Assembly: GCA_948144175.1 (NCBI GenBank)
Contig: CANXME010002522.1
Location: 62,001-126,000 of the forward strand
Origin: Closterium sp. NIES-65
Lineage: Eukaryota > Streptophyta > Zygnematophyceae > Desmidiales > Closteriaceae
Direction of reading: 5' to 3'
DNA length: 64,000 nucleotides
This document shows, one piece after another, positions 22,759 to 64,000 of the stretch. Under the pieces are notes generated by a model. It made no database searches. It saw nothing but the letters and a program-made list of their open reading frames with translations, and had not been told where the DNA came from. The position numbers were made by a program, and so were the translations under genes. Numbering within the stretch: position 1 is the stretch's first letter; each line of letters begins with the position of its first letter.

Positions 22759-23158
22759 TGTTGGGCTGAGAATTTCAGCCTTAGGATCTTTGCAGAGAAT
22801 AGGCTAGTAAGTGCTAGAGTAGCACAGCGGAAGTCTTGAGTGAATGTACTTGTGCTGGTATGTGAGAACAAGTAATTGATTAAAGTAAAGGGCATACAGG
22901 AATATATAGAAAAGATAGATTACAAGGAACGGTTATGTTTATCGAGACGCGTAGCGCTTTGACTATCGAGGTGGTTACTGTTCACTGAAGCGTCGCTTGC
23001 TGTTACGTAACCTCCAGGCGGTTACAGCTCGCAACCTCTAGTTGCGGTTTGATGTGGTACGCGCCTTTTCGACTTCGTACTCCTTTTGTTGTGCTTCAGT
23101 ATCGGGTGAGGTTCGATACTACAGAAACGCACTAAGTCATGCGTTTATTTTCCCAACA
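22759..23158 (-). repeat. 3' LTR of the nested copia (400 bp)
   Basis: Identical to 28431-28830 by eye. Lies at the 3' end of the element because coding is on the minus strand. The last codons and stop of the polyprotein fall just inside it. Confidence 0.96.
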
Positions 23159-28323: not shown

Positions 28324-28418
28324 GTCTTGCCTTTCTTGAGTGAAGGTTGAACTTCTTGGTCGTTTGCAGATTGGTAGCCTGAAAGAGGCTTAATGACGAG
28401 AGCCTTTGTTCTCTGACT

Positions 28419-40630: not shown

Positions 40631-43600
40631 TCAACCCACCTGATCCTTCAGACTTGTAATATCTCCTCGCAGCTCCCCCGACTGCTGCATCAACTCGTCA
40701 TCCCAATCCAGGTCCCTCCATTCCCGTGCCCCCTCTCTCTCGCCTCCTCCACTATCCCGTACTTCCTTCTCTCTTTCACCACCCGCCTCCTCTGCCCCTT
40801 CTTCCCCTTCTGCCCCATCTGCTTCCTCGGACCTGCTTTCTCCAAGCTTTGTTTCCTCTAGATCTGCCTCCTGAGTCTCTTTCAAACCTCCCAATCCTTG
40901 CTCCCCCTGCCTCCCCAAATGCTGACGCTCCTGCTGCTGCAGCCTCAGAGCAGCAGCCAGTGCGTGGCACGACTCCATCTGTTGCCCCAGCAGCCGCCGC
41001 AGCTCCTCGATCTGCCCCTGCTGCCGAGCCACCAGCTCCTGAGAGTGAACGGACAGGAATTCAAAGGGAACAACACAAGTCAGCACGGGTAAGACAAGAG
41101 CAGCAGCCAGTGCGTGGCACGCCTCCATTTGCTGCCCTAACAGCCACCGAAGCTCCTCGATCTGCCCCTGCTGCCGCGACACGAGCTCCTGAAAGGGGTG
41201 GGAAGGAAGGGGAAGTTGTAAGGGAACAACACAAGGCAGCAGTGCAGCACGGGTCGAGCAGCCAGTGCATGCCATGGCTCCATCTGTGTTGCTGACCAGG
41301 TGGCAGCATAAAAAATCACCCAAGGCCCACTCACACAGGCATCAAGTGAGTGTTCTAAAAACGCTGGGAAAATAAACAATCTACTCACTAATGTCTCAAA
41401 GCAGGCTTTAGCCTGAAGGCAGGGTGGGAACCTACCCGGAGATCACTGCTTGATGCTGCGCTGCCAGCATGAGCATGCAGACATGAGTCTTCACACACTC
41501 ACCACCAAGGTCCCAATGCAATGACATGGTGTTACGGCCTTTTGCCTCAAGGCAGGAGGTAACCTACCCGGAGGTCGCTGCTTGATGCTGGGCTGCCAGC
41601 AAGAGCATGCTGACACGTGGCATGAGGCCAGGCCAGTGCTGCGCCACGTGGAGAGGCCGACGCTGTGCCACGTGGACGTGCTGAGTCTGTGCCACGTGGA
41701 GAGGCCAACAGTGCGCCACGTGGCATGCATCCATCCTCCTCGGACTCGTTCATGTCGATGCACGATGATCCCATAAAGTCAATCGTGTGTTGGTGTTGAG
41801 ACTCCTTAGAGCATCCCGCCACGCCCACACTCAGTCTCAGCCAATCAATCGACCCCTCATCTCTTCCCCTTTCTCCCTCCTCACTTCCCTTCATCCCATC
41901 CTCTCCCTCTTCCTCCCCCTCATCTCCCTCCTTCACTATCCCCGTCCTCCTCCTCGCTGCCTCCTGTCCCCCCGGTTCTCTCTCCAACCCCTCTTTTATA
42001 TCACCACCTAGCGCTCCTTTGCCCTCTCTCCATCCTCCTCCCTGTCCTCCTCCACGCCCTAGTGACAAAACAGTGAGATCTGAGTCCTCACGCTCAGCAG
42101 AATAAGGCTTTAACGATTTTCCACTCTCGGACTCCCCACAACGTGCATCCATGTCCAAGGGACCTTCTCTGCTGCTTCCATCACCACCTCCCTCATCAAA
42201 ACCCCTCGCACTGCCCTCCCCTCTCCTGCTTCTCACACTGCTACTCCTGCTGCCGCTGCTGCTGCTGCTGCTGCTGTTGCTGCTACCCTCCCTGCTGCTG
42301 CGCCCTCTGTCACTCTCGCTGCTACTGCACCCTCTGCTGCTGCCCGCGCCACTGCTGCACCTCCCCCCCTTTATCAGACCCATCCTCCCCTCCCTACTGC
42401 TCTCCCCCACACTCTCCCTCATACTCTCCCTCACACTCTCCCCCTCGTTCCACCCACTCCACCTGCTTCCCACGCTCTCCCATGCTCCTGCTCCTGCTCC
42501 TGCTCTCGCCGCCCTGGCCCAGGGGAGACTGTGTGTCTCGTGCCCAGACACCCAAGTCTCAATCTGCTGCTGCTGTGGCTGAAACTGCTGCTGCTGCTGC
42601 TGCTGATGGTGCTGCTGATGGTGCTGCTGTGGCTGAAACTGCTGCTGCTGCTGCTGATGGTGCTGCTGATGGTGCTGCTGATGGTGCTGCTGTGGCTGAA
42701 ACTGCTGCTGCTGCTGCTGATGGTGCTGCTGTGACTGAAACTGATGCGGCTGCTGCTCCGAAGGGTGCAATCTGGGGCTCCAGGCTTGGGGCATGAGTGA
42801 GATAGGCGAGAACCGATGCTGCTGCTGCTGCTGATGGTGCTGGTGGCGCTGCTGCTGCTGCTCCTGCTGTTGTTGCTGCTGCTGTCCCGTTTCCAGTCTC
42901 TCCTGCTGCTGCTCCTGCTGCTCCTGTCCCCGCTGCTCCTGCTGCTGCCCTTCATTCCCAGTCAACCCAGTGGTCTTCTCTTCAGTCAGACTCACGCTGC
43001 TACCCCTAATCCCTGCTTCGCTAACAACCTCCTCGAAAACGTCACAATCTGTCCCCTTTCCTTCCCACGTCAGAGCTGATTCGAAAACCGTCAAGGAACC
43101 AGACCTTGCTTCGCTAGCAGCATCCTCAAATACCGCACACTCTAACCCCTCCCTTTCCCACCCTCCACCTTCTCCTCCCTCTCTCTCCTTCTCCACTCTC
43201 CCCTCTTCACCCCTCCCTCCCTCACCCCTCCTTTCCTCAACCCTCCCCTCCTTCCCAGACCTCCTCTCCTCTTCTACCTTCCCTTCTCCTTCAACAGCAT
43301 TTTCTCCCACCTCCCCCTCTGCACCTCCTTCCCTCCCTTCTCCTCCCTCATCCTCCCTCCCACCCAGCCCCCCTTCACTCCACTTCCTTCCGCCCTCCTC
43401 TCCTCCCTCCCTCTCTCCCTCCCCTGTCACCTCCCCCGCACCACCAGTCCTGCCAGAACTCATCTCCGCTTCAAAGGACCCCAGGAACCCCACCAGTGAA
43501 ACAGAAACCCCTTCTGCTACCACTCTTGTACCTACCACTGCACCCCCTTGCGCCATACCACCCTCTCCCGCTGCCGACTCGTTAGTGGACGACTCAATAT

Positions 43601-46600
43601 CAGTGAGATCCGGCATACCAAAGCCCGAATTTTCCACACGTCTCCCCCCTTGAAACCAATTTGCGGACACTCCCCACGGCCCTGATCCATAGATACACGG
43701 AGCATCAACGTTCCCAGCTGGACCAAACTCTCCCTGTGTCTCCCCAGTCATCTCAGAACCTTCCTCTAGGATGCTGGGGAGGGCGGCAGACAAGCGCCGA
43801 TCTCCCCGCACCCTCTGAATCACATCAAGCTCTTCATGTGAATCACCATAGAGAGACCTATTCTCACCCTCCCTACGGCAACTCTGCGTTCCCTCCACAA
43901 ACTCTTTCTCAGGCGTCTCGAAACTCTGACTCCCCTCCTGAAACCGATTCTGACACGTCTCAAAACTCAGGCTACCCTCCAAAAACTCCTCTCCGCACTC
44001 CCCAGCCATCCACTTGCCACTGCTTTCTCTCGTCTCAATCATCCAACCACCAGTGTGGTCCCCACCGTCACCCACCCACCTGCGTGTGCTCTCCCCTGGT
44101 CGCATGTCCCAACCGCCTGTGCTTCCCTCCCCGTCACCCACCCACCTGCGTGTGCTCTCCCCACTGTCACCCACCCACCTGCGTGTGCTCTCCCCCGGGC
44201 CAAACACCCAATCCAGCACCAGTCGGTCCATCCCAGCCCTCGCTGCACACCTCTCCAGCTCCACCGCTGCTGCTGCCGCCGCCGCCGCTGCTGCTGCTGC
44301 TCCTGCAGCGGCTGCTGCCTCGTCCTTTTCAGCTGACGCTCGTGCCACGCTTACTATCCCTCCTGTTGCTTCTGCTGTCTCTGATGCTGCAGCTGCCTCT
44401 GCTTCTCCTGCCTCTGCTGCTGCCGCCCATTGCATGTTAAGGCGGTTCGCTGCTGGCCCATGCATGCCACGCTGCTGCCTTCGCCTCACACGTTCCCCAT
44501 GCACCCCATGCTGCATCCCATGCACCCCATGCTGCATCCCATGCACCCCATGCTGCATCCCATGCACCCCATGCTGCATCCCATGCACCCCATGCTGCAT
44601 CCCATGCACCCCATGCTGCATCCCATGCACCCCATGCTGCATCCCATGCACCCCATGCTGCATCCCATGCACCCCATGCTGCATCCCATGCTCCCCATGC
44701 ATCAAACCCACTCCACGCCTCCCATGCACCCCATGCATGTCATGCATTCCATGCTCCCCATGCACCCCATGCATGTCGTGCATCCCATGCTCCCCATGCA
44801 TGTCGTGCATCCCATGCTCCCCATGCACCCCATGCATGTCGTGCATCCCATGCTCCCCATGCATGTCGTGCATCCCATGCTCCCCATGCACCCCATGCAT
44901 GTCGTGCATCCCATGCTCCCCATGCACCCCATACATCCCATGCTCCCCATGCCTCCTCTCTCCTCTTACCCCACCCATCACTCTCCCCCTCTTCTCACAG
45001 CAGCACACACACGGACTACTACCCGAGTGGTCCCTTAACCATGCCTCAGATTCGCCAAGTCCCTTAAGCCCTTTCCTGCGGCTCTCTCGAGTTCTCTCAC
45101 AGCCTCCACGTGGCAGGCCACGATTGGCAGCTTCTGCATGCGAGCACTCGCCAGCCCCTGCCTCCCCGTCCTTGTAGCGAAACCACGCGCCTTGCACCCC
45201 CTCGTGCTCCTTATAACGAGTCAATCTCTGCTGCTCTTCCCCGAGGTCCTTAAATCGAGTCATTGCGTGCCCCTCTTCCTCTCGGTCCTTATAACGAGTC
45301 ACTGCGTGCTTCTCTCCCTCACGATCCTTGTAATGAGTCAGGGCGCCTTCCATGAGATGCAGAGATGCCACCCACGCCACTGCCTTGGCCGCCACGATGC
45401 ATGCATAGGCGCGCTGGGAGGGGAGAGCGCAGAGGAATAGGGGGATGGGAGGCGGTAAGATAACACCCTCGCCACCGCCTTGGCAGCAACGATACACGCA
45501 TAGGCGCGCTGGGAGGGGAGAGCGCAGGGGACACGGATGGGAGGGAGTTGAGAAGACAAGGTGAGAAAATTCGGGCATTGGGAATGGGAGGGCGAGGGGG
45601 GAGCAGAGGGACGCGGAGAGAGACAGAGAGTTGGAGAGAGAGAGAGAGTTGGAGAGAAACAGAGAGTTGGAGAGAGAGAGAGTTGGAGAGAGACAGAGAG
45701 TTGGAGAGAGACAGAGAGTTGGAGAGAGACAGAGAGTTGGAGAGAGACAGAGAGGTGGAGAGAGAGAGAGAGTTGGAGAGAGACAGAGAGTTGGAGAGAG
45801 ACAGAGAGTTGGAGAGAGACAGAGAGTTGGAGAGAGACAGAGAGTTGGAGAGAGACAGAGAGTTGGAGAGAGACAGAGAGTTGGAGAGAGACAGAGAGTT
45901 GGAGAGAGACAGAGAGTTGGAGAGAGACAGAGAGTTGGAGAGAGACAGAGAGTTGGAGAGAGACAGAGAGTTGGAGAGAGACAGAGAGCTGGAGAGAGAC
46001 AGAGAGTTGGAGAGAGACAGAGAGTTGGAGAGAGACAGAGAGTTGGAGAGAGACAGAGAGTTGGAGAGAGACAGAGAGTTGGAGAGAGAGAGAGAGAGTT
46101 GGAGAGAGACAGAGAGTTGGAGAGAGAAAGAGAGTTGGAGAGAGACAGAGAGTTGGAGAGAGACAGAGAGTTGGAGAGAGAGAGTTGGAGAGAGACAGAG
46201 AGTTGGAGAGAGAGAGAGAGTTGGAGAGAGACAGAGAGGTGGAGAGAGACAGAGAGTTGGAGAGAGACAGAGAGTTGGAGAGAGACAGAGAGTTGGAGAG
46301 AGACAGAGAGTTGGAGAGAGACAGAGAGGTGGAGAGAGAGAGAGAGTAGGAGAGAGACAGAGAGTTGGAGAGAGACAGAGAGTTGGAGAGAGAGAGAGAG
46401 TTGGAGAGAGAGAGAGAGAGTTGGAGAGAGAGAGAGAGTTGGAGAGAGACAGAGAGTTGGAGAGAGACAGAGAGGTGGAGAGAGACAGAGAGTTGGAGAG
46501 AGACAGAGAGTTGGAGAGAGACAGAGAGTTGGAGAGAGACAGAGAGTTGGAGAGAGAGAGAGAGAGTTGGAGAGAGACAGAGAGTTGGAGAGAGACAGAG

Positions 46601-49022
46601 AGTTGGAGAGAGACAGAGAGTTGGAGAGAGACAGAGAGTTGGAGAGAGAGAGAGAGTTGGAGAGAGACAGAGAGTTGGAGAGAGACAGAGAGTTGGAGAG
46701 AGAGAGAGAGTTGGAGAGAGACAGAGAGTTGGAGAGAGACAGAGAGTTGGAGAGAGAGAGAGAGTTGGAGAGAGACAGAGAGTTGGAGAGAGAGAGAGAG
46801 TTGGAGAGAGACAGAGAGTTGGAGAGAGACAGAGAGTTGGAGAGAGACAGAGAGTTGGAGAGAGACAGAGAGTTGGAGAGAGACAGAGAGTTGGAGAGAG
46901 ACAGAGAGTTGGAGAGAGAGAGAGAGAGTTGGAGAGAGAGAGAGAGTTGGAGAGAGACAGAGAGTTGGAGAGAGACAGAGAGTTGGAGAGAGAGAGAGAG
47001 TTGGAGAGAGACAGAGAGTTGGAGAGAGAGAGAGAGTTGGAGAGAGAGAGAGAGTTGGAGAGAGACAGAGAGTTGGAGAGAGAGAGAGAGAGTTGGAGAG
47101 AGAGAGAGAGTTGGAGAGAGAGAGAGAGTTGGAGAGAGAGAGAGAGTTGGAGAGAGACAGAGAGTTGGAGAGAGACAGAGAGTTGGAGAGAGACAGAGAG
47201 TTGGAGAGAGACAGAGAGTTGGAGAGAGACAGAAAGGTGGAGAGAGCGATATAGATTGGGGGGAGGAGGGAGCAAAAGAGGGAGGAAGGAAGGACGAGAA
47301 GCACGGAGTGAAGGAGGAGGGACACAGAGGGAGTAAGGAGAGAAAGATTGAGGAAGAGAGATGCGGGTATGGAGGGGAAAAGAGAGCTAAACCAAGAAAG
47401 ATAAGGGGGAAAGGTGCGGAGGGGGCGGAGTTGAAGGGAGTTCTCACCACACACACGCGAGCCTCAGCACTTACGCAGAGGGCGGATGCCACGTGGCAGG
47501 GAGAGCGCCATATCATGCTTAAAACGAACGATCTGGACCTATCTGCCGCTCCCGTTAAGCTCTCCCCCGTTATAAGAGACTCCAAAAAAGCCCTCTCCAT
47601 TCTACCCCCATCGCTCCACCATTTGTTAGAGTCACCAAAGCCACAGCCACCAACGTCATCACTGACGTTACCATCCACGTCATCACCAACGCCATAACAC
47701 AAGCTCCCACCATCTCCACCCTCCCATCCTGCGCCTCTCACTCCCTCCAAGTCCCACAAATCCCCTCCTCTCCCCACACCCCATGCCTCCAACCCGGCAG
47801 GTACGGCAAGATCCATGCCTGCCACCAGCCTCGGCATTCCCAAGGCACTGATGCTTTGGCTGCTGTTGCCGCTGATACCAGTGATGCCAGTACCAGCGCC
47901 CCTGATACCACTGATATCACTCATTCGCCTGCGAAAGTAACCATACTCGTGTCTCTTCGCCCGGTCCGCTAGTTCCGCCTCGCCCGGATTCCCTGCCGTA
48001 TCCGCGTATTCGTTGTGACTCGTCCCCGTCGCTGTAAGCGAAACGGAGCGCACGATACCGCGTCCAGGAGGCCGGCTCCTGGCCGTATCTGCACCTTCCG
48101 CAGGACCCCAACTTCCCAAGTCCGCATTCTCGCTATTCGCTCCTAGCGCGTCCGCATTCCCGCTATTCGCACCTAGCGCTGACGCTGCTGACGCTGCTGT
48201 GCTGCCTCTCTCCACGCATCCTTTCTGCTCCGCAACTGGGTTTGAGATCCCGGAATTTACGGGTTCGCTGCGCTTACCCACCAATCCACGCACAGGGAAG
48301 AAATGCTTCAGCTTGCTAAAGAACCCGCGACCTGAGGGCCGGACTTTCCACTCCGTTTGAGTGCCGTTGCTTGTTCCTGTAGCGAGAGAAGTATTAGCGA
48401 GAGGCGAAGGAATTTCTGTCGGCTTTCCTTGTTCGTGCTGATGTGGACGCTGATGCTGCTGACGTGGATGCTGGTGATGCTGTTGGTTCTGGGGATTACG
48501 GTGCGCCTGAGCGATCTTCGCTGACCGCGGTTCGCTCCCTAGTTTACCCGCGGGTTGCGTTGTCAGGTTCGTTCGGTCAGCCAGCGGGTTTGGTTTCCGC
48601 GATCCGTCTGCTGTGGAGCTCTGAGGATTGCTGTTGCTGGAAAGACCATGATTCGAGTGACTGTGACCGGAGTGATTATGATGAGAGCTGTGGGCAGGGT
48701 GACAGCAACCGGTGCTCTTACCGGAAGCTCCAGGCCCAAAAAAGCCGGGAACCATACCAGGAATTTGGCCGTAAAGCGCGCTGCTACTGTAGCAACTATT
48801 GGACGGACAGTCTTCCCGCACGCGGCAAAAGGGGAACGACGCGCCGTCGATACTCTCGAGGCGGCTCGGAGAGGGGAATTCCCGAGGCGGGAATTCTTGA
48901 TGAGGGTCCAGGACCGCGCTGCTCTTGCGACGCTCTCTTGTAACGAATCGAGCGCTACATGTGACTGTAACGGGATCGAGCACCGTGAGGCGGTGCTCTT
49001 GGCCTGAGTCAAGGGTCGCCAT
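40631..49022 (-). CDS. Large low-complexity protein with C-terminal coiled coil, multi-exon, family unknown
   Basis: Proposed exons on the minus strand: 49022-47475 (516 codons), 45413-41568 (1282 codons) and 41038-40631 (ending at TGA 40633-40631), all joined in phase 0. Splice sites are TGC|GTAAGTG at 47474, CCTCCCAG| before 45413, CGG|GTAGGT at 41567 and CTCTCAG| before 41038. The first exon starts [10 protein letters not shown] and is His/Gln-rich near residues 105-200. The second has [26 protein letters not shown] repeats, long HGMHDMHG and HGMQHGV repeats, an Ala run, STRRWVGD repeats, Glu/Gly-rich and Gln-rich ([10 protein letters not shown]) tracts, and Ser-rich tracts. The third is a coiled coil ([20 protein letters not shown]). 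Intron 1 consists mostly of an 18-bp repeat without stops, so one uninterrupted frame of about 2490 codons appears across it. That is not the protein. I do not recognise the family. It may be cytoskeletal or scaffold-like, but that is a guess. Confidence 0.55.
41096..41188 (-). other. Second copy of the coiled-coil exon start inside the intron
   Basis: After the acceptor CCCTTTCAG the frame gives [20 protein letters not shown] then [11 protein letters not shown], nearly identical to the exon start at 41038 ([31 protein letters not shown]), 150 bp away. A third partial copy (end only) lies near 41261-41298. No good donor follows, so it is either skipped, or retained as an alternative exon start: the frame stays open into the next copy. 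Confidence 0.7.
41436..41475 (-). other. Second copy of an exon end plus donor
   Basis: The sequence encoding [11 protein letters not shown] followed by GTAGGTTCCC repeats the end of the long exon ([21 protein letters not shown] at 41568) 132 bp further into the intron. Both carry the same donor. Confidence 0.75.
44480..44960 (-). repeat. Coding 21-bp and related repeats ([15 protein letters not shown])
   Basis: About nine units of a 21-bp repeat (plus strand CCCATGCACCCCATGCTGCAT) at 44500-44700 encode MQHGVHG. Mixed units with CATGCATGTCGTGCATC at 44720-44960 encode [12 protein letters not shown]. Both unit lengths are multiples of three and keep the frame, as expected of translated repeats. 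Confidence 0.85.
45465..45508 (-). other. Second copy of an acceptor plus exon start
   Basis: CCTCCCAG|CGCGCCTATGCGTG, encoding [13 protein letters not shown], repeats the start of the long exon at 45413, 95 bp upstream in the intron and in the same phase. After the shared 40 bp it diverges and lacks the rest of the exon. Confidence 0.78.
45622..47240 (+). repeat. 18-bp minisatellite filling an intron, about 90 units
   Basis: GGAGAGAGACAGAGAGTT repeats with few variants (GAGAGAGAG insertions). 18 bp is six codons, so several frames on both strands stay open for 500-700 codons. It lies within intron 1 (47474-45414) of the minus-strand gene and should not be annotated as coding. Confidence 0.93.
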
Positions 49023-50507
49023 AACAAGCAACGAAGAAGCAGCTGACGGGAAATATGATGTTCAGTTGCTGCTTCACCAACCTTAACCTTAGCCGCAGTC
49101 TAAGGAGGCCTAGAAAGAATACTGTCAGAAAAAGGAATCCGTTAACGCCGGGGAACACTAGTGTGGGCGCGCTAAAGCCATGGCGCCACGGCTGCAGCTG
49201 AGGAACACTACTATTTCTCAACGTTGAAGCTTCACACCTCTCGAGTCTTCTTGATCAAACTAGTGCGCAGGGGTGACTGGAGGAAGTGATACTGTTGAGC
49301 TCGACGGTTGCGTACGATGCTGTGCATTGTAAAACGGTTCCCAACATATTTTCACCGCTACTCACCTTTCTGAACATTGAAACGGAATTCGTGAAGGAAC
49401 CTTTTTACCTGGGATGGGAAGGAGCGCTTTCTGCCAATCACGAAAGCGATGCGGGACGAATTTTCAAGGTGTCTGCAGCAGCCATGTTTCTGATTGGCTT
49501 GGCTGGCGGATGTTGCGAGGTTGAATTGTTGCAGACTGAACTAAACGGAACGACAGGAGGCAATTTCAACGGTGGCGGGAAACTGACTGTCAGACAGTGC
49601 AGGGCTGGCATTGCGCGCCAGAAGTGTACAGAACCAGAACCACGAAAATAGCAGGACCACGTAACCACAATCGTAACTGTTTCGTGGCCATGCGAGTGTC
49701 GCGAAAGCACATCCACAACAGCGAAGGACTGGGCCTAAGAGCAATCAGCCCAAGTCCAACCCGCTTTAGCACGGACAAACACACAACACCACTGACAGCT
49801 ACCAGCATGTTTTCATATGGATTCTTGGTGCATTTCTGTGTTTAAGTAACATCCACTGCCATTGTTGTTGCCATGCTAGCTCATTGCATATAACCGAATG
49901 GGCCACCACAAATCATACCACCACACATCACTACGAACTGACGAACAACTTCCTTCTACACACTACTTAACAATGCGACCAGCTTTCGAAGCTAGCAAAC
50001 CAGCCGGAGAGGTGCGGACAAGTTTGGAAGTGTGAAGGTGGAGGAGCGATCTGATGGTGGTGGAGCGAGCCAGAGGTTGATCATGGTGATGACAGGTATG
50101 TGCATGGATTGCAGTTTGGATGTGCTATGTCATGGTGCTGTTGGGGAAACGGGAGGAGGGCACAGGCAGTGAAAAGAACAAGTTGAACAGTGAGAAAGAG
50201 CGAGAGGCCAAGCGAAGAGAAGGTTGGATGGGGCCTGAAAATCAATGGGGCCTGAAAATCAATGGTGACTGTGCGATTGATGGCAGGAAAAGAGCAGGAG
50301 GGGTGGAGAGCGAGGAGCAAGAGCCGTTGCATCACAAGGGGACAGCAGTACAGATTTACAGAACAGAAAAAAGGGAGGGAGAAGGTGGAGCGCGGAGGGA
50401 GTGGGGGAGGGGGGTATTGGGTGGTTCATAAGGACAAAATTGTCATAAGCAAAGATGCAATTCAGACCGTCATACCTAGGGTGCAGAAGCACACAGCGTC
50501 GCAGCAT
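49023..50507. other. Intergenic; no gene recognised
   Basis: Divides the 5' end of the minus-strand coiled-coil gene from the 3' end of eS30, which is also on the minus strand. It presumably holds the former's promoter and the latter's terminator. No protein or RNA family is evident. Confidence 0.4.
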
Positions 50508-51622
50508 TTACTTCTCAGACGAGTTAGGGCCGCGCTTCTTGCCGAATCCCACCACTGCACGGCGGAGGGAGGGGAAGATGGCAGGGGGGAGACGGAGAAA
50601 CGAGACGGAAAGAGGTAGGAGATTGTCAAGGCACACAAGCAGCACTCAGCGTTGTTTCTTGTGATTGTAGACCCACGCTGATTTGCCAAATTCCAACCAG
50701 TGTAAGACAGAAAGAGGCGATAGGGAGAGGGAGAGGAGGGTGAGCTGGCGGGCGTGAGAAGGCAGAACGAGCAGTAGAGGTAGTTCGCCGCCCACGATCC
50801 TGGTTACATAGGCTCACGCCTTACGCTCGTAACACAGGCTCGCTTTTGACAAAGGTCATGCCTCACGCCCAAACCACACGCTCGTAATATAGGATTGTAA
50901 CGAGGAGTTTCAGTACCGCACCCCCAATCTCTCCCAATAATAGGCTAGCCCTACTTGACGTCGCCAGAAATGCGAAATTGCTGTGACCCTGCGCGACGCT
51001 GCTGCGACTCCTGAGCGAAAACGCTCCTAAATGGATCGCTGCCCTGTCGCCAAGTACGACGAAACACAATTCAAACCCTCGTTGGAGGGTAAAAATAACT
51101 AATTTGACTCCCTCAGCTTGCGCCTGCGCGATCTGACGTTATTGAAGGCCGCATCTGTCGTTTCAGCAAAGCCGACATCTGACCTAATCAGGCCGTTGCT
51201 GCTGCTAGAAGGAGCAGCAAGCGCTCCCCTCTGACCGCAGCGCTCCCTCAAACGAAAGTTAAGCAGTGGCACCCCAAGCGAAGGTGACTACAACGGGTGT
51301 GCGCATACCGGCGGTGACGAGCGGTTGTACTGCATGCGCTTGTGCGCTTGCCTGTAGGGACGACAACAGGTGCGCGCTAGCCTGCAGTGACTATAAAGGG
51401 TGCGCGCGTACCGGCGGTGACGAAGCGGCGGCGCTAGCCTGCAGTGTAGTCAACGTCTGCCTTGAGTCGACTCAAAACACGTACCAGCGGTGACGAAGCG
51501 ACGGTTGTACTGCATGCGCTTGTGCGCGCGGCCCTTGGGCTGCTTCTTCTTGTCCTGCTTCTCCACCTTGGGCGTCTGCCCGCGCACCTTACCGGCACGC
51601 GCCAACGATCCGTGCACCTTAC
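50508..51622 (-). CDS. RPS30: Ribosomal protein eS30 (small subunit), 5' exon not resolved
   Basis: Exon 51622-51485 encodes [18 protein letters not shown], then [17 protein letters not shown] and [10 protein letters not shown]. Exon 50554-50508 encodes [15 protein letters not shown] and a TAA. They join in phase (GCT G|TG GTG) through GTACGT and CGTGCAG. This is nearly the whole 62-residue eS30, a basic protein of the 40S subunit near the decoding site; the GPNSSEK end is plant-like and there is no ubiquitin-like fusion. The acceptor before 51622 has a C-rich tract. The start Met-Gly must come from an upstream exon. One candidate is ATGA|GTGAGT at 52644-52635 (second residue Ser), but I could not settle it. 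A telo-box lies at 52151-52162. Partial copies of both exon edges surround the real exon. Confidence 0.88.
51299..51428 (-). other. Two copies of the eS30 exon end plus donor
   Basis: On the minus strand CGCTTCGTCACCGCCG|GTACGC (near 51428-51405) and CGCTCGTCACCGCCG|GTATGC (near 51322-51299) repeat the real RRFVTA exon end and donor at 51500-51479. The sequence GTTGTACTGCATGCGCTTGTG at 51328-51348 also repeats 51507-51527. Confidence 0.8.
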
Positions 51623-51704
51623 CTGCGCGCAAGTGCGGGGGGGGGGAGGGAAATGGGAGCACAGGTAGTGGGGATTAGAGGGGAACAGGATCAGAACTGC
51701 TACT

Positions 51705-51960
51705 CCACCTTACCGGCCCGCGCCAACGATCCGTGCACCTTACCTGCGCGCAAACGCGGCGGAGAAGGCGAAGGGGATCAGGGGTGGCGGGGGGGGGGAA
51801 GAAGGGGGAGAAATGAACACGAGCCCGAAGCAGGGGAACGGGAGATGGGAACACAGGTATTTGGGATGGGGGGGGAACAAGAGAACAATTGTCCTGCGCG
51901 TCGGGCGTGTGTCCGCGCAACTTGCCGGCGCGGGCCAATAATCCGTGCACGTTACCACTG
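51705..51960 (-). other. Two copies of the eS30 acceptor plus exon start
   Basis: On the minus strand 51748-51708 repeats GCGCGCAG|GTAAGGTGCACGG and LARAGKV before a stop. 51957-51890 encodes NVHGLLARAGKLRGHTPD behind CCCTTCAG. Both resemble the real exon start at 51622 and lie upstream of it. The distal copy is more diverged. Confidence 0.78.
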
Positions 51961-52150
51961 AAGGGAGTACGGGGAAGGACGGAGAGGTTGAAGGGGAGGG
52001 GGGGGCGAAGGAAAGCGTTGAGTGGGTATGGGAAACGAAATGGAGGGGAGTTGTGAGAGATGTTGGCCCTAAAACACCAGGGGGTGGAGGGAAGTAGGGG
52101 AAAGATGCGAGTGTTTAAGTTTAATGGGCGTCTTCCCTTGGCAACGCGCT

Positions 52151-52162
52151 TTTAGGGTTAGG
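52151..52162 (-). promoter_or_regulatory. Telo-box-like motif upstream of eS30
   Basis: CCTAACCCTAAA on the minus strand resembles the plant telo-box AAACCCTAA common in ribosomal-protein promoters and 5' leaders. It lies about 530 bp upstream of the recognised exon. Confidence 0.45.
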
Positions 52163-53615
52163 AAAAAACAAAGCCGTGGACCGACTCCCAAGTTGTCTCT
52201 CTAAGGCGAGGGAGTCGGTCCACCGGGGAGAGGACGACGACGGCGACTACAGGAAGACGGTCGACACAGGAAGACCACGAAACGACAGAAAGAATTCGGA
52301 GTGGATTGACATGACAGATCGCACGAGAGAACGCCGCTGAACGACTGGACACGATCGCCAGGGATAGCTCTAGAAGGATAACAGCTCTGATACGGACCGA
52401 ATGAGATCCATTCTTAATGCTGCGGTAAGCTTGGTGGAAAGAGGTCAATATATGGCAAGAGGTGAATGTAGACACGAGCATCAACTTCGGCGACACAGAA
52501 ACGAGTGAACTACCCAATCAGCCAGCGATTCCGACATCAGGCACATACTAGGTCAGGGTTTCTGGTTTAATAACACGATTCACCTCTCAACCAATTTGCT
52601 ACAAGACAAATACTGACTGCCTCTAAAAGGGATTTAACTCACTCATGGTGAGAAGTAGAGTCGCGACGTCGCAAGCAACGAAGGGAGCGGCGGCACGGGA
52701 GTGCAACGAGCTTAGGGGAGGAGACTAAAGCCGCGAAAAGAGATCTTGGAAAAGAGGAGTGGGTGGAAAATAAGACGAGGTGAGAAAGCCAGAGTAGGGG
52801 CGCGTGCGGAGGTTGAGAACGCACTGGCGCGCGGAAAAGCGCAGACAAGCGCGGAGGTGGTGGAACGGGGGAGGGAGTTGTTGCGGAAAATACCTAGGAT
52901 CTGGGCGGAAAAGTAACACGGGGTGTGAAAGGGGGAAATTGTACATAGACATCTAGGGGTTTGGGGGAGGGTGTTCGAGGTTGATAGCGGGTGGCGGAAG
53001 CAATGTTTATACTCGTTACAGATGGATGCTTTTGCAAGTAGTATCAGAGTGTAGTGTAATCTTAGCATGTATGCAAAAAGTTGCTTTCGATGTTATTGAT
53101 GTGTACTGATGTCTGCCAAGATTATCCATCAGCGAAGGTACCAATATCTGCTCGAGAATCGGATAGTCACCGCTCTGCACCGTATGGTAGCCCACTGTGA
53201 CACAAAATACCACGTACAACGCCTTTTAAAGTACAGACTTTGGACTCGTCGGGGCTGGACGTACCACCACAACCCTCGTGTTTGTACGTTTCCCTGATGC
53301 TGCGCAACCATGCCTTGGTCGCCTTGCGTTGCGGTTTCTTTTGCACACATATCAGTTCTGAAATCGTACCATTTCGGTGACTCGGTGACTCGATGCGCTG
53401 TGCTCGGGGAAACCAAGGTTCGGCTGACGAGGAAAATTAGGCAAGACTTTTTGCCAAGACTCTTCGAATTATCGGTGTCTCTAGTAATTTTTGCTGATTG
53501 GAATCTGTTTTTGGTTTAACCAGGACGCGACTCGGTAACGCCTAGAGCAGCTTGACTAGCGAGGACGGGGGCGGTTATAAGGCAGAATTGGTACACTCTA
53601 TCGAAAGCACCGTAC
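52163..53615. other. No gene recognised
   Basis: Short open frames on both strands have no recognisable family. 52163-52560 and 53020-53520 are unique-looking sequence; nothing else is supported. Confidence 0.4.
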
Positions 53616-53711
53616 GACGTCTTGAACGCCAGCAGTCGCAAACGCGCGACGCCTTGAACGCCTGCAGTCGCAAACGCGGGACGCCTTGAACGCCAGTAGT
53701 CGCTAACGCGC
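53616..53711 (+). repeat. 32-bp tandem repeat, three copies
   Basis: GACGCCTTGAACGCC followed by [A/T]GCAGTCGCAAACGCG starts at 53616, 53648 and 53680. It lies upstream of the thioredoxin-like gene. Confidence 0.9.
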
Positions 53712-54057
53712 GGTGGGAAGCGGATGGGTTCCCGCGACGACGGCGGGGATCCGCAGAGCACAGGCGGAGGCGCAACGCTGTGGGGAAAGCTGGAGGAGAC
53801 ATGCAGGTGTGTGGTGGGGGGGAGGAGAGTGGGTTAGGGGAATGGTGGGGAAGATGGGTTGGGGGAAAGGGGAGGGGGAGGTTGCGCGGCGACACTTTCC
53901 TGGAACTACATTCACCCTCTCCTCCCCCCTCACGCGCTCCCCCCCCCGCTCCTTGGCTTGAGAAGCCCCCTGGCAAGCCCAGGCCTCACGTGGTGCAATT
54001 CCATCTGAAAAAGGCGATCCGTACCTGTGCCGAACCACCTCAATTGTCCCCTCTCAG

Positions 54058-57035
54058 GTATTACACGGGCCTTCCCAAGCCTCGCGTGGAGGCTCGGGTG
54101 GTGGAGTTCCGATCCGAGAGGCAGTTTGTGTCGCTGCTGCAGCAGGGGAAGCCGGTCGCCGTGGCCTTCACCTTTTCGTGAGTCTGGCGTATTAGGGGAG
54201 TTTGGCGCGAGTTTGGCACGAGTTTGGCACGAGTTTGGCACGAGTTTGGCACGAGTTTGGCATGAGTTTGGCACGAGTTTGGCACGAGTTTGGCACGAGT
54301 TTGGCACGAGTTTGGCACGAGTTTGGCACGAGTTTGGCACGAGTTTGGCACGAGTTTGGCACGAGGTCCCAATACTGCAGCAGGCCAGACAGTTGTGGGT
54401 GGGCAGGGCAGTTGGTGTCGCTGCTGCAGCAGGGGACGACAGTGGCCGTGGCCTTCACCTTTTCGTGAGTGCCCTTGAGTTTCTCACGTGCCTTATTCGC
54501 ACCTTCACCTTTGTGTGGTGCCACTGGCTTGGTGCCGCTGAAACGCACCAGAAACGTAGGTGATGCCACTGCTGTGGGTGGCCAGTTCGTGTCGGCGCTG
54601 CAGCAAGGGAAGCTAGTGGCCGTGGCTTGCACCTTTTCGTGAGTCTGGCGTATCAGGCGAGTCTGATTGCAGAGGGATTTCTTCTGTTTCATCAGGCAGG
54701 CAGGTGTGGGTGGGCAGTTTGTGTCGCTGCTGCAGCAGGGGAAGCCGTTCGCCGTGGCATTCACCTTCAGACAGGCGTGTGCTGATTCTGACAGGCGTGT
54801 GCTGATTCCGACAGGCGTGTGCTGATTCCGACAGGCGTGTGCTGATTCCGACAGGCGTGTGCTGATTCTGACAGGCGTGTGCTGATTCAGACAGGCGTGT
54901 GCTGAGCATGCACTGGCTGGCTCTACCACCCTTCCCCCTGTATCCTCAGCAGCGTTTCCTCGTTCGTCCCGGAGGTAACGGATCGGATTGAGTCAACTTA
55001 AAGCGCTTTTGACATTTTTGGGGACTCAGAGATTCTCACTTCTCAACGCAAGCGCTTCGGTGTTCACGTCTGATATATTTCTGGAACTCTTCTCGCATTC
55101 GCTTATAAGCCCTCTTCGTGTTCCTGTGCTTTCCTCCTCTTCCCGCCCTTGTCTCTGTGGCACACATGCAAGAATTTCGAAAAGTCATATTTGCATCTTC
55201 CTCCTCTGCCCTCTCCTTTCCGCCCGGCAGCTGTGCACACACTCGTCACTTTGACGAGATGTTTCGACAAGCGTCGGCTGACCTCCACCCGCATGTCAAC
55301 TTTATCCGAGTAATTATGCTGCTCACCCCATGTCGCTTATGCTGCTCCACCCATGCTGCACCGCATGCCGCTCAACCATGCTGCTCCTCCCATACTGCTC
55401 CCACCAAGCTGCATCCCCCATGCTGCTTCCCCCATGCTGCTCCCCCCATGCTGCTCCCCCCATGCTGCTCCCACCAAGCTGCATCCCCCATGCTGCTCCC
55501 CCCATGCTGCTGCTTCCTCCAATGCCACTCCCCCCATGCTGCTTCCCCCATGCTGCTCCCCCTTGCTGCTCCTCCCATGCTGCTTCCCCCATGCTCTCCC
55601 CATGCTGCTCCCCCCATCGTGCTGCTCCCCCCATCATGCTGCTCCCCATGCAACCTGCTCTGTGCGCTGATGATCATGGCATGGCAGTCACGCACAGTCG
55701 TGCCTGCAGTCACTGCCCGTCCTTTTAAAACATCTACTCTCTCTCGTGGCTCCTTGGCGTGACGATCGCACGATGAGGCACATGGAGCCTCGCATTCTCC
55801 TCTATGTTGGTGACTTTTGAGTCGATCAAAAGTCACCTCCTTGGCGCGACGATCGCACGATGAGGCACATGGAGCCTCGCATTCTCCTCTATGTTGGTGA
55901 CTTTTGAGTCGATCAAAAGTCACCTCCTTGGCGCGACGATCGCATGATGAGGCACATGGAGCCTCGCATTCTCCTCTATGTTGGTGACTTTTGAGTCGAT
56001 CAAAAGTCACCTCCTTGGCGCGACGATCGCACGATGAGGCACATGGAGCCTCGCATTCTCCTGTGTGTTGGTTTTTGCAGCTCAAGAACATGGCTTTCTG
56101 GCATGGCTGCTGGCATGGCTGCTGGCAGGTGGATTGCCCCAGGCACCTTGGCTTCTGCATTGCCCGGCAGCGCAAGGACTACCCCTTGTGTGTTTTGAGT
56201 CGACTCAAATCACTACACTCTCTGCTGGCATGGCTGCTGGGATGTTTGATGGCATGGCTGGTGGCATTGCTGCCGGCATGGCTGCTGGCATGTGTGTGGC
56301 ATGACTGGTGGCATTACCGGCAGGTGGATTGCCCCAAGCACCTTGGCTTCTGCATCGCTTGACAGCGCAAGGACTACCCCTTGTGTGTTTTGAGTCGACT
56401 CAAATCACAACTCTCTCTGATGGCATGGCTTCTGACATGGCTGCTGGCATGTATGTGTCATGTCTCGTGACATTACCGGCAGGTGGATTGCCCCAAGCAC
56501 CTTGGCTTCTGCATCGCTCGACAGCGCAAGGACTACCCCTTTATAGAGGTCTTCTATAACTCGAAAGAGGCGCAGCCGCAGCGGGACCCGACTCCCCCTG
56601 CGGGCGGAGCTACAGGAGCAGCAGGAGTGGTTCGCTACAGTGTCATGGTTCTGCCCGTAAGTCATATGAAGTATGGTCTGTATCTGGTAACCTATGCTGG
56701 TCCAATGTATGATTTTCTTCTAGTAGCGACCTAGTTGTTTTCCTGCTTCTTGTATGGTAAGTGTTTGTAACATAGCTGTCCATATTCGTCTCGTTTGTTG
56801 AAAGGACTGGTTTTGCCGCTGTGTCGCGGGCCTTTATTACGTCCTTTGCATCTCTGTGGTTACTATCATTTGCCTTATTTCCATTTTCCCCTTTTCCCCT
56901 TTTCGTGGATTTTGACAAATGCAGTACAACTATGACGTTAGCACTTATGGTTTTAGAGAATTCTTCAAGAAGCATCAGTTAATTTCTCCTATTTTCTTGA
57001 AACATAATAAAGGTATTCATAATTTCAGTCAGTGA
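54058..57035 (+). CDS. Thioredoxin-fold-like protein, 5' end not resolved
   Basis: Exons 54058-54177, 55231-55309, 56483-56656 and 56925-57035 join in phase through GTGAGT/GCAG, GTAATT/GCAG and GTAAGT/GCAG sites. They read VVEFRSERQFVSLLQQG..VAVAFTF, then SCAHTRHFDEMFRQASADLH and PHVNFIR, then VDCPKHLGFCIARQRKDYPF and IEVFYNSKEA, ending YNYDVSTYGFREFFKKHQ. The strand-helix order (EFxS..F..LL, VAVAFTF.C..T, VNFIRVDCP, YPFIEVF) is that of a thioredoxin fold. The usual CxxC is reduced to a single Cys (SCAHT), so a redox role is uncertain. The family looks like a conserved plant thioredoxin-superfamily protein; I cannot name it. An acceptor CCTCTCAG precedes 54058, so at least one upstream exon is expected. 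The frame also stays open upstream to 53780. Introns 1 and 2 hold copied exon edges and four minisatellites. Confidence 0.72.
54204..54366 (+). repeat. 11-bp minisatellite in intron 1, about 15 units
   Basis: CGAGTTTGGCA repeats with very little variation right after the first exon's donor. 11 bp is not a multiple of three and contains no stop, hence spurious open frames on both strands. Confidence 0.93.
54408..54775 (+). other. Three copies of the first exon's end inside intron 1
   Basis: GTGTCGCTGCTGCAGCAGGG ... GTGGCCTTCACCTTTTC|GTGAGT of the real exon (54128-54183) recurs at about 54414-54472 and 54594-54646, both with the GTGAGT donor, and at 54719-54770 without it. Each copy extends upstream for a few codons (GGGCAG/GGCCAG) and then diverges. 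Confidence 0.88.
54770..54905 (+). repeat. 20-bp minisatellite in intron 1, about 7 units
   Basis: GACAGGCGTGTGCTGATTCC repeats directly after the last exon-edge copy. Confidence 0.93.
55370..55650 (+). repeat. 15-bp minisatellite in intron 2
   Basis: CATGCTGCTCCCCCC and variants (CATGCTGCTTCCCCC, CACCAAGCTGCATCC) repeat about 18 times shortly after the second exon's donor. Confidence 0.9.
55751..56070 (+). repeat. 87-bp tandem repeat with an imperfect palindrome, 3.7 copies
   Basis: TCCTTGGCG blocks at 55751, 55838, 55925 and 56012 define an 87-bp period. Each complete unit contains GGTGACTTTTGA GTCGA TCAAAAGTCACC, a 12-bp inverted repeat around GTCGA, related to the TTGAGTCGACTCAA palindrome found elsewhere. 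87 bp is 29 codons, so the minus strand is open. Confidence 0.93.
56129..56404 (+). other. Two copies of the third exon's start, each followed by a palindrome
   Basis: GTGGATTGCCCCA.GCACCTTGG and on to GCAAGGACTACCCC of the real exon (56483-56545) recurs at 56129-56186 and 56324-56381, each behind a GGCAG acceptor. Both copies leave the exon sequence at the same base, after GACTACCCC. They continue TTGTGTGTTTTGAGTCGACTC, placing the palindrome at 56194-56209 and 56389-56404. Confidence 0.9.
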
Positions 57036-58421
57036 CAACTGTAAATTGCTCATTGAGTCAGCCTTGCATTTGTATACCACCACTAGTGCTGATTGATTTA
57101 TGTTTCGGTATGGCAATCTCTGGGAGTAATAGGAATTAGTTTATTCCCTCCACTAAATCTCAATCGAGGTGCTTATTATAAAGACAGCTGCAAAACACTT
57201 GCAGCGCACGTCATGCTGACAGTCAGTGCGACATCAATCACTCGCGTAATTGGTCACCAAAGAGAGCAGTGCGTGCTTCTAGGTGGAACTTGGCTGTGCG
57301 ATATTTTCAGGCTCATCGTACGGCGCGATGCGATGGCAACAGATGTGGTTTGCCCATCGCTTGTGAAGCATCCTCCCGTTGCTTCATTGGTTGTTGACCC
57401 CCCACCTCGACGTGACCGGCACATCAGTGACCATGCGACACATCGGCGTCGCCACTACCATACGTGCGACCCATGCCCCACGGCGTCGTCTTGTGGGCAT
57501 GTCTCTCGTGGTCACCTCTAGTGCGACTCGCTTCGGCTGCTGCAAGAGTGCTGCACGGAGGGGCATTTGTTCTCTCGGTCTGCCCTGCGAATGGGCGGGC
57601 AGCGCTGCGGCTGCGCCTCGTTCTGTCGCGGCGGCACCTGCTTGATGCACGCTGGCGCAAGCTGATTCGTCCGCGCAAGCCAGCACGTTCCGCCCGCAAT
57701 ATCTTGAAACCCTCATCTGCGGAACCTGTCGCAATGGCTGCACGGAACTTTGAATCCTTTCCGCATGTGGCTTACCCCAAACCGGGCAGCCTAGCGCAGC
57801 AAGAAATTATGAACTTGCCCGAAACGAAACAAAGAAGCTTCTGAGTGGAGCGGAGTTTTTCTGAGCGCCTGACCTTTCAAACTCCCACACCTGCTTTCTG
57901 ATCAACCCGTGACATTTCCACCCGAATTTGAATATTGGTTAGCTCGGAATTTGTTCCGATCCGCCCCACATTTGTTGAAAGAGATAGGTAACGTCGCTGG
58001 TGAGCAGAGGTCACTGCGGACGGAACGTGCGCGGAGTGCGTGCGACAAGTCAACCCAGCGATGCACACTGAACAGGCGAGACGACCAGAGCAGACGACCA
58101 GAGCGTAGAACAGGAGAGAGAAGCAGCAGCCGCGAGGAAACGAAGCGGAAGGCCCAAAAGGCCCCAGAAAGCGTCCAACTGCGTGAACGACTTCGTCCCA
58201 CGGCCAAGGATTAGAGGTCTAATAGAACTGCCTACCTCCCACCGCTGCTGCTGCTGTTGCTAGGGTTTCGTTAGCTCGTGAGGCCAGCCGTTTCGCGTTA
58301 CAAGATTTAGTGCGTTAATACCTAGATTTTTTCTTGTCAGCCTCTGCAAATGCAATGGCGACATGTTGACCAGAACCGATTGCACCAGGTTTCCCGCGTG
58401 CTAACACGCATGGGCCTTTAG
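57036..58421. other. Intergenic and 5' leader of the CCCH gene; no other gene recognised
   Basis: GC-rich after about 57400 with short open frames on both strands and no recognisable family. 58250-58421 probably includes the leader of the gene starting at 58422. It contains upstream ATGs (58350, 58355). Confidence 0.4.
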
Positions 58422-63892
<5,471 letters not shown>

Positions 63893-63905
<13 letters not shown>

Positions 63906-64000
63906 CTGGTGAGTAGAGCCGCCTGCTCTGGTGAGTAGAGCCGCCTGCTCTGGTGAGTAGAGCCGCCTGCTCTGGTGAGTAGAGCCGCCTGCTCTGGTGA
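63893..64000 (+). repeat. 22-bp tandem repeat of an exon end plus splice donor
   Basis: CTGCTCTG|GTGAGTAGAGCCGC repeats every 22 bp, with five donors (GTGAGT or its start at 63908, 63930, 63952, 63974 and 63996), and continues off the window. The first copy abuts the open exon of the CCCH gene. Confidence 0.9.

What the first reader, a model, noticed from the sequence alone, without database searches (positions are those of the whole stretch)
40631..64000. Introns repeatedly contain tandem copies of the adjacent exon edge with its splice site
In all four recognisable genes, the intron next to an exon holds one to four extra copies of that exon's edge. Copies of an exon start, with acceptor, lie upstream of the real exon: 45508 vs 45413; 41188 vs 41038; 51748 and 51957 vs 51622; 56129 and 56324 vs 56483; 62656 vs 62790; 62942 vs 63114. 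Copies of an exon end, with donor, lie downstream: 41436 vs 41568; 51405 and 51299 vs 51485; 54472 and 54646 vs 54177; 63930 onwards vs 63908. The arrangement is directional and recurrent, so it is unlikely to be chance. It suggests a genome-wide process that grows introns by duplicating splice junctions, with effects on splice choice. I know of no described system with this exact pattern.
Basis: partly seen in the sequence, partly recalled or inferred. Interest (0 to 1): 0.87.

Follow-up and report, generated by a model that had tools for sequence, protein, structure and literature searches.

The report
Palindrome inserts flanked by duplicated DNA
The exon-edge copies in these algal introns are real but are ordinary local duplications that happen to cross exon borders; behind some of them lies something stranger, a family of tiny palindromes scattered through this alga's genome and often wedged between two copies of the DNA they interrupt.

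Summary
The window is Closterium, probably strain NIES-65. The listed copies are real with a few corrections. But splice junctions are not clearly richer in copies than other sequence: 6 of 24 junctions against about 26% of 1698 windows, or 4 of 24 against 14% of points in the same genes after masking minisatellites. The "directional" arrangement follows automatically when a tandem duplication spans a boundary.

What is new lies at some of the seams: a palindrome family, TTTTGAG-NNNN-CTCAAAA, with 30,327 exact places in the 874-Mb genome against 4 for the reversed pattern. Of 66 distinct clusters held, 43 sit between direct copies of their target (14-108 bp, median 32), against 204 of 3211 control points. 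The centre is fixed, the outer ends vary, and where arms can be traced both copy the same end of a ~43-bp unit. Best model: both 3' ends of a staggered break are extended on one short template and joined through the self-complementary tetramer. The scar X-palindrome-X lengthens introns and sometimes copies exon edges. Structure is shown; mechanism and enzyme are inferred.

The parts
39528..39688 (.). X-palindrome-X: two 72-bp direct copies (95.8%) around TTTGAGACGTCTCAAAA at 39600-39616
51460..51477 (.). palindrome TTGAGTCGACTCAA (14 bp perfect at 51462) in the S30 intron, just past the donor, between two copies of the exon end
51485..51622 (-). S30 (eS30) coding exon whose edges are copied in both flanking introns
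   Evidence: phmmer to an eS30 chain, E 1.4e-23
51387..51423 (-). copy of S30 exon end with donor
51306..51347 (-). second copy of S30 exon end with donor
   Evidence: 87%
51706..51753 (-). copy of S30 exon start with acceptor
   Evidence: 98%
51894..51956 (-). older copy of S30 exon start; CAG displaced by 2 nt
   Evidence: 79%; direct reading
54058..54177 (+). exon of thioredoxin-like gene C, copied three times downstream
   Evidence: NIES-68 P0026, 92%
54407..54470 (+). copy 1 of gene C exon end with donor
   Evidence: 92%; shared with NIES-53
54583..54657 (+). copy 2 of gene C exon end with donor
   Evidence: 87%
   Evidence: 96%
55750..56072 (.). intronic array of 87-bp units with near-palindrome GTGACTTTTGAGTCGATCAAAAGTCAC (centre 2 nt short) between copies: X-P-X-P-X-P-X
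56128..56187 (+). copy of gene C exon start (56483) with acceptor; palindrome follows at 56193-56210
56315..56382 (+). second copy of gene C exon start with acceptor; palindrome follows at 56388-56405
56483..56656 (+). real gene C exon
62385..62502 (.). intron 5 of gene D: X-P-X-P-X, three copies of 28 bp, palindromes at 62413-62430 and 62458-62475
62644..62718 (+). copy of gene D exon 6 (62790-62850) with acceptor; the deposited NIES-65 model ends in it
62927..62974 (+). copy of gene D exon 7 start region
   Evidence: 81%
63900..64000 (+). 22-bp tandem array containing gene D exon 7 end and donor; runs off the window
41406..41483 (-). copy of putative gene A exon end
   Evidence: 87%
41097..41286 (-). 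copy of putative gene A exon start
   Evidence: 79%
45458..45559 (-). copy of putative gene A exon start
   Evidence: 79%

Best explanation
The exon-edge copies are local tandem duplications that cross exon borders by position, not by targeting. One recognisable class is made by a genome-wide insertion process. SHOWN: a short palindrome centred on TTTTGAG-NNNN-CTCAAAA often lies between two direct copies of the target sequence; its centre is fixed, its outer ends vary and are often unequal, and traceable arms are copies of one end of the same ~43-bp unit. INFERRED: a break with long staggered ends occurs; filling the overhangs duplicates the target X; both 3' ends are extended on the same short template, starting at varying positions and stopping at the same 4-nt end (mostly TCGA, ACGT, GCGC or AATT); the two identical, self-complementary termini anneal and are joined, giving X-palindrome-X. 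MOST SPECULATIVE: the template is a short RNA copied by a telomerase-like or retroelement reverse transcriptase, as an iterated 17-nt addition in one insert suggests.
For: TTTTGAGNNNNCTCAAAA: 30,327 places against 4 reversed. TCGA centre: 13,080 against 0. In the prokaryote collection (257 Gb) 4 places, about chance; 0 in viral contigs. X-insert-X by an anchored test: 43 of 66 distinct clusters (one search listed 44 of 67 with one site fetched twice) against 204 of 3211 control points (controls exclude minisatellite surroundings, clusters were not filtered). By origin: 31 of 44 in the 20 regions chosen around TCGA hits, of which 9 of 16 for members with other centres, not used for the choice; 3 of 4 in the window; 9 of 18 elsewhere. 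Stricter flush test: 26 of 44 against 77 of 1691, with 6 of 16 among members not used for the choice. Target copies outnumber palindromes by one in the singles and the window arrays, so the palindrome went between copies. Arms: of 41 TCGA-centre members in regions chosen on the core only (array members counted singly), 18 have both arms and 8 one arm matching the GTCACC end by >=3 nt; of 13 in loci fetched for one-sided or long arms, 6 and 5; in neither set does an arm match the other end of the unit by more than 1 nt. GTGAC/GTCAC on both sides: 1,013 places; GTGACTTTTGAGTCGA not followed by C: 273. Unequal arms, e.g. L041 with 3 against 24 nt. L059 holds GGTGACTTTTGAGTCGA in tandem, then an inverted join, between target copies. 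Of the 50 sites listed (three contigs, hand count) 46 have a self-complementary centre, four tetramers only. Duplication from staggered breaks is shown in mouse and human cells (PMC8355091, passages); telomerase-RNA insertion at breaks is inferred in mammals (PMC2246262, passages).
Against: 23 of 66 clusters show no duplication by the anchored test, and 14 of the 43 that do have inserts longer than 40 bp, i.e. more than the palindrome. 15 of 41 TCGA members have no arm matching the template by 3 nt, and some carry other palindromic arms (GC, CGGT), so more than one template, or other processes, are needed. Most junction copies in the window have no palindrome. Of 80 short-gap duplications in the held regions, 51 have gaps without TTTGAG or CTCAAA. 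The ~43-bp unit also occurs as a tandem satellite with 7-bp inverted ends (L045; 47-bp spacing in C718), which fits a micro-transposon too. Nine unselected 4-kb stretches held no member (about one expected). Enzyme, template molecule and strand polarity are unknown, and the telomere-repeat search did not complete.
Confidence: 0.55

Rival explanations
1. A micro-transposon: the ~43-bp unit CTCAAAA...TTTTGAG is a mobile element with 7-bp inverted ends, cut and joined by an integrase with widely spaced nicks; palindromes are inverted joins of its ends and the duplications are very long target-site duplications.
For: Unit with inverted ends and a constant tetramer, also in tandem; flush duplications.
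Against: The outer ends of inserts are not fixed and the centre is, the opposite of a terminal-inverted-repeat element; duplication length varies from 14 to 108 bp; no arm in the 54 members checked matches the other unit end by more than 1 nt.
Confidence: 0.22
2. Ordinary break-repair duplications only: the palindromes are an old dispersed satellite whose hairpins cause breaks, and duplications form next to them.
For: Many duplications in this genome have no palindrome; 23 of 66 palindrome clusters lack a duplication by the anchored test.
Against: One more target copy than palindrome in the clean cases; there the palindrome fills the gap between copies. A pre-existing palindrome inside a duplicated segment would give equal numbers.
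Confidence: 0.18
3. One reading: a process that duplicates splice junctions and so grows introns.
For: Several junctions per gene are copied; 7 of 24 if weak cases are added by hand.
Against: Rate at junctions about equals background; direction is automatic.
Confidence: 0.03
4. Assembly or library artefact.
For: Long-read assembly; tandem copies are error-prone.
Against: Copies diverged by up to about 10%; one copy is present in NIES-53, sequenced on another platform; the paper says NIES-65 was corrected with linked short reads.
Confidence: 0.02

Closest known systems
Interstitial telomeric sequences and telomerase-RNA insertions at double-strand breaks in mammals (PMC2246262; passages seen)
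   Same: Short sequence added at break ends, RNA-templated, sometimes with target duplication and microhomology.
   Different: There 130 rodent and 25 primate loci of telomeric repeats; here >30,000 palindromes of a motif not known to be telomeric, both ends extended alike and joined head to head, duplication frequent.
Small tandem duplications from breaks with 3' overhangs, CST-Pol alpha fill-in (PMC8355091; passages seen)
   Same: Duplication of the stretch between staggered ends, tens of bp.
   Different: No palindrome between copies is mentioned (the word stem palindrom occurs 0 times in the main text).
Intron gain by tandem duplication (PMC2891723, abstract; PMC4974935, search listing)
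   Same: Tandem duplication around splice sites changes gene structure.
   Different: Here existing introns are lengthened, and splice sites are not clearly preferred.
Introners (PMC9860276; one passage)
   Same: Insertions that add intron sequence across a genome.
   Different: Introners make new introns and, where visible, have 3-9 bp target duplications; these inserts are 16-83 bp, lie in existing introns or outside genes in the window, and have long duplications.
REP palindromes moved by RAYT transposases in bacteria (recalled)
   Same: 20-40 bp palindromes in very high copy number.
   Different: Eukaryote; perfect palindrome with variable ends; long target duplications.
Twin-primed LINE insertion (recalled; mentioned in PMC2246262)
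   Same: Both break ends prime on one RNA, giving inverted copies and target duplication.
   Different: Here both ends copy the same few nucleotides and stop at the same end.

Membership tests
Terminal-inverted-repeat transposon / MITE | fixed outer ends | tested here: not met
   Insert ends vary, centre fixed
Terminal-inverted-repeat transposon / MITE | target duplication of fixed short length | tested here: not met
   14-108 bp, median 32, in 43 of 66 clusters
LINE/SINE retrotransposon | 3' tail such as poly-A on the insert | tested here: not met
   Inserts listed are palindrome-centred, no tail seen by eye
LINE/SINE retrotransposon | variable-length target duplication | tested here: met
Introner | insert itself becomes an intron in an exon | tested here: not met
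   The palindromes in genes C, D and S30 lie inside introns; none in the exons checked
Templated break-repair insertion (telomerase/ITS type) | insert copied from a defined template | tested here: met
   Arms match one end of a ~43-bp unit: 3-11 nt in core-selected members, 24-35 nt in loci fetched because they had a long arm
Templated break-repair insertion (telomerase/ITS type) | insert equals the telomere repeat | not tested
   Telomere-repeat search was sent but not answered
Templated break-repair insertion (telomerase/ITS type) | reverse transcriptase involved | not testable with these tools
   needs biochemistry or mutants
   24 junctions only, so a modest excess is not excluded
Known structured RNA | match to an Rfam family | tested here: not met
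   7 loci, no match at gathering score; best mir-722, 28.3 bits against 81, E 0.0089

The most novel reading that the evidence does not exclude
Closterium has a dedicated break-end extension system: a reverse transcriptase with short guide-like RNAs (families ending TCGA, ACGT, GCGC, AATT) adds the same sticky tail to both sides of a staggered break, so that the two ends can re-pair by their self-complementary tetramer. The more than 30,000 palindromes, many with a duplicated flank, record a telomerase-like repair mode that lengthens introns and seeds tandem arrays.
Probability: 0.25. Interest if true: 0.93.

Novelty: categorically new. Interest (0 to 1): 0.8.

Why it matters
If right, it is an insertion type with fixed centre, variable ends and long variable target duplication, which fits no mobile-element class tested here. 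It would give a readable record of staggered breaks in a close algal relative of land plants, a concrete route by which introns lengthen and tandem arrays start, and a testable case of templated tailing of both break ends. It also warns gene annotators: a copied exon edge entered a deposited gene model (P0043).

Tried and rejected
Junction-targeted duplication: not supported on background rates. A virus or prokaryote source for the palindrome: none in viral contigs (records near this genome may be left out there), 4 chance-level hits in prokaryote genomes. Known RNA family: none at gathering score in 7 loci. A longer ordinary transposon ending in GTGACTTTTGAGTCGA: the one-sided form is rare (273). 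Earlier duplication tests: best local alignments gave 15 of 43 against 120 of 1232 (too loose); a seed test gave 52 of 69 cores against 195 of 1077 with minisatellites left in the controls; replaced. The 47-nt unit folds as RNA no better than shuffles (z -0.77), the 42-nt ACGT unit better (z -2.92); both were read off few loci, so little weight. No Pfam scan was completed (searches failed on stop codons and were not repeated); domain names come from the precomputed columns. Literature: the palindrome letters occur in no held paper; searches on palindromes with filler DNA (6 of 6 listed), target duplications (14 of 14 listed) and satellites (12 of 63 listed) showed nothing like it by title; the stem palindrom occurs 0 times in the main text of the Closterium genome paper (PMC10407611, passages). 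Only that open library was searched. Not obtained: genome-wide counts per centre other than TCGA (not sent), the telomere repeat, the 17-mer dimer, the satellite-type arm pair.


Full report
WHAT THE WINDOW IS. The Ty1/copia-type frame at 23137-28389 matches proteins of Closterium sp. NIES-53 and NIES-54 at up to 77% identity. The stitched product of gene D matches a NIES-65 protein at 99% over 47% of the query (P0043). The held genome has 874,075,685 bases in 2400 contigs, and the window is C2224:62001-126000. The genome paper shows an 876-Mb column in a table whose strain heading was not in the passage I saw (PMC10407611). That the window is NIES-65 is therefore inferred. Genes: an S30 exon (51485-51622, minus strand), thioredoxin-like gene C (about 53.7 kb on; P0026 of NIES-68 92%) and CCCH zinc-finger/RRM-type gene D (58422 on; exon joins agree with NIES-67 P0044). 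Gene A at 40.6-49 kb is low-complexity and could not be checked.

THE OBSERVATION. Whether they favour splice junctions is another matter. With 60-bp windows and 500-bp flanks, 6 of 24 junctions have a copy on the intron side, against about 26% of 1698 windows across the 64 kb. With minisatellites masked, 4 of 24 junctions lie inside a duplicated segment, against 14.0% of points in the same gene spans (8.9% in exons, 20.7% in introns). Three weaker cases would make 7 of 24, but I added them by hand and did not relax the background likewise. The exon side has 1 of 24. Direction carries no information: a tandem duplication spanning an acceptor necessarily leaves the extra copy upstream, and one spanning a donor leaves it downstream.

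A SIGNATURE AT THE SEAMS. Several seams carry the same palindrome, TTTTGAGTCGACTCAAAA or a near form: 51460, 55815/55902/55989, 56193, 56388, 62413, 62458, and with another centre 39600. In the window TTTGAGNNNNCTCAAA occurs 5 times against 0.01 expected. Genome-wide the 18-mer occurs 13,080 times and TTTTGAGNNNNCTCAAAA 30,327 times, against 0 and 4 for the reversed patterns. Among the 50 sites listed (three contigs, my hand count) the centre is TCGA 22, ACGT 12, GCGC 10, AATT 2 and other 4, each of these four one change from one of the main tetramers. In 262 kb (20 regions chosen around hits, plus the window) 65 of 72 perfect palindromes of 16 bp or more contain TTTGAG, while three single-base shuffles of the same DNA gave 14 palindromes of that size in all. 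The regions were chosen on the family, so the share is biased upward. Of 80 short-gap local duplications found there and in nine further stretches, 29 have TTTGAG or CTCAAA in the gap (same bias).

ANATOMY. In the clean cases the palindrome makes up the insert between two direct copies of the target. By an anchored test 43 of 66 distinct clusters show target copies on both sides: 14-108 bp (median 32), insert 16-83 bp (median 31; 29 of 43 at most 40 bp), copies 89-100% identical, nine pairs identical (one search listed 44 of 67, with one site fetched twice as L013 and L034). Control points: 204 of 3211; controls exclude minisatellite surroundings, clusters do not. The 66 include loci fetched for long arms or one-sided forms. 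Split by origin: 31 of 44 in the 20 regions, and within these 9 of 16 for centres other than the TCGA used to choose them; 3 of 4 in the window; 9 of 18 elsewhere, where many stretches are only ~340 bases long. A stricter flush test gave 26 of 44 against 77 of 1691, and 6 of 16 for members not used in the choice. In the clean singles and the window arrays, target copies exceed palindromes by one, so the palindrome went in between copies; duplicating a segment that already held a palindrome would give equal numbers.

THE ARMS. Outward from CTCAAAA the arms follow GTCACCTCGTTACAATGGCACACGACACATTTTGAG for varying lengths. Of 41 TCGA-centre members in regions chosen on the core only (array members counted singly), 18 have both arms and 8 have one arm matching by at least 3 nt, and 15 have neither; of 13 in loci fetched for one-sided or long arms the figures are 6, 5 and 2. 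In both sets no arm matches the opposite end of the unit by more than 1 nt. Both arms of at least 5 nt occur 1,013 times genome-wide. GTGACTTTTGAGTCGA followed by anything but C occurs 273 times, so copying nearly always stops at TCGA. GTCACCTCGTTACAATGGCACAC occurs 77 times (44 + 33), some with 47-bp spacing, which shows a satellite form of the unit. Arm lengths are often unequal, e.g. 3 and 24 nt in L041. In L059 a 17-nt piece, GGTGACTTTTGAGTCGA, is repeated head to tail and then joined to an inverted arm, all between copies of the target.

MECHANISM. Fixed centre, variable ends, same template end on both sides, self-complementary tetramer at the join and duplicated target are explained together if both 3' ends of a staggered break are tailed from one short template and then anneal by their tips. 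Duplication of the stretch between staggered ends is known from mouse and human cells (PMC8355091, passages). Copying of telomerase RNA into breaks has been inferred for mammals (PMC2246262, passages), where telomeric inserts sometimes come with target duplication. A reverse transcriptase is my inference; a DNA template with a fixed 5' end would do as well. Against it: a third of clusters show no duplication by the test, some arms follow other palindromic sequences, and the satellite form with inverted ends leaves a micro-transposon possible.

BACK TO THE INTRONS. In the gene C intron 55310-56482 (1173 bp) the palindrome array and the palindrome-linked exon-start copies span 55750-56072 and 56128-56482 by coordinate, somewhat over half of the intron. 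In gene D intron 5 an array of three X and two palindromes lies near a palindrome-free copy of exon 6. So introns do grow by duplication, but along a general route. The copies matter for annotation: the NIES-65 model P0043 ends in the copy of exon 6 (26 of 26 residues). At least one is no assembly error: NIES-53 shows the gene C exon-end copy (18 of 23 residues).

NOVELTY. The duplication part is known. The palindrome family matched no class I tested (see membership rows), and the searches named in Tried and rejected found no description of it in the held open library. Subscription literature was not searched.

Noticed in passing
window 23137-28389: Ty1/copia-type retrotransposon frame of 1750 aa, open throughout, up to 77% identical to Closterium NIES-53/54 proteins.
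   Followed up: partly
window 9225-13135: 22-bp minisatellite of about 178 copies.
   Followed up: no
window 45615-47246: 18-bp minisatellite of about 90 copies, GGAGAGAGACAGAGAGTT, in a putative intron.
   Followed up: no
window 3058-4853: 181-bp unit repeated about ten times.
   Followed up: no
window 63550-63703: Reading frame of gene D exon 7 changes across a CAG array: the frame with P0044-like sequence after it differs from the one before it. Sequencing error or real is not known.
   Followed up: no
P0045 (Closterium sp. Yama58-4): The deposited model fuses the neighbouring genes C and D into one protein.
   Followed up: no
L020:2114: A 28-bp perfect palindrome of another kind, GGCGAACACGAACATGTTCGTGTTCGCC.
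   Followed up: no
G000 C985:235393-235860, C852:1159818-1160029: Regular arrays holding GTGACTTTTGAGTCGAG at 41- and 65-bp spacing.
   Followed up: no
L016:6135-6321: 42-bp spaced array of ACGT-centre palindromes whose unit CTCAAAACATTGCCATGTGTATGAAGAAGTGTTTTGAG resembles the TCGA unit in layout.
   Followed up: partly
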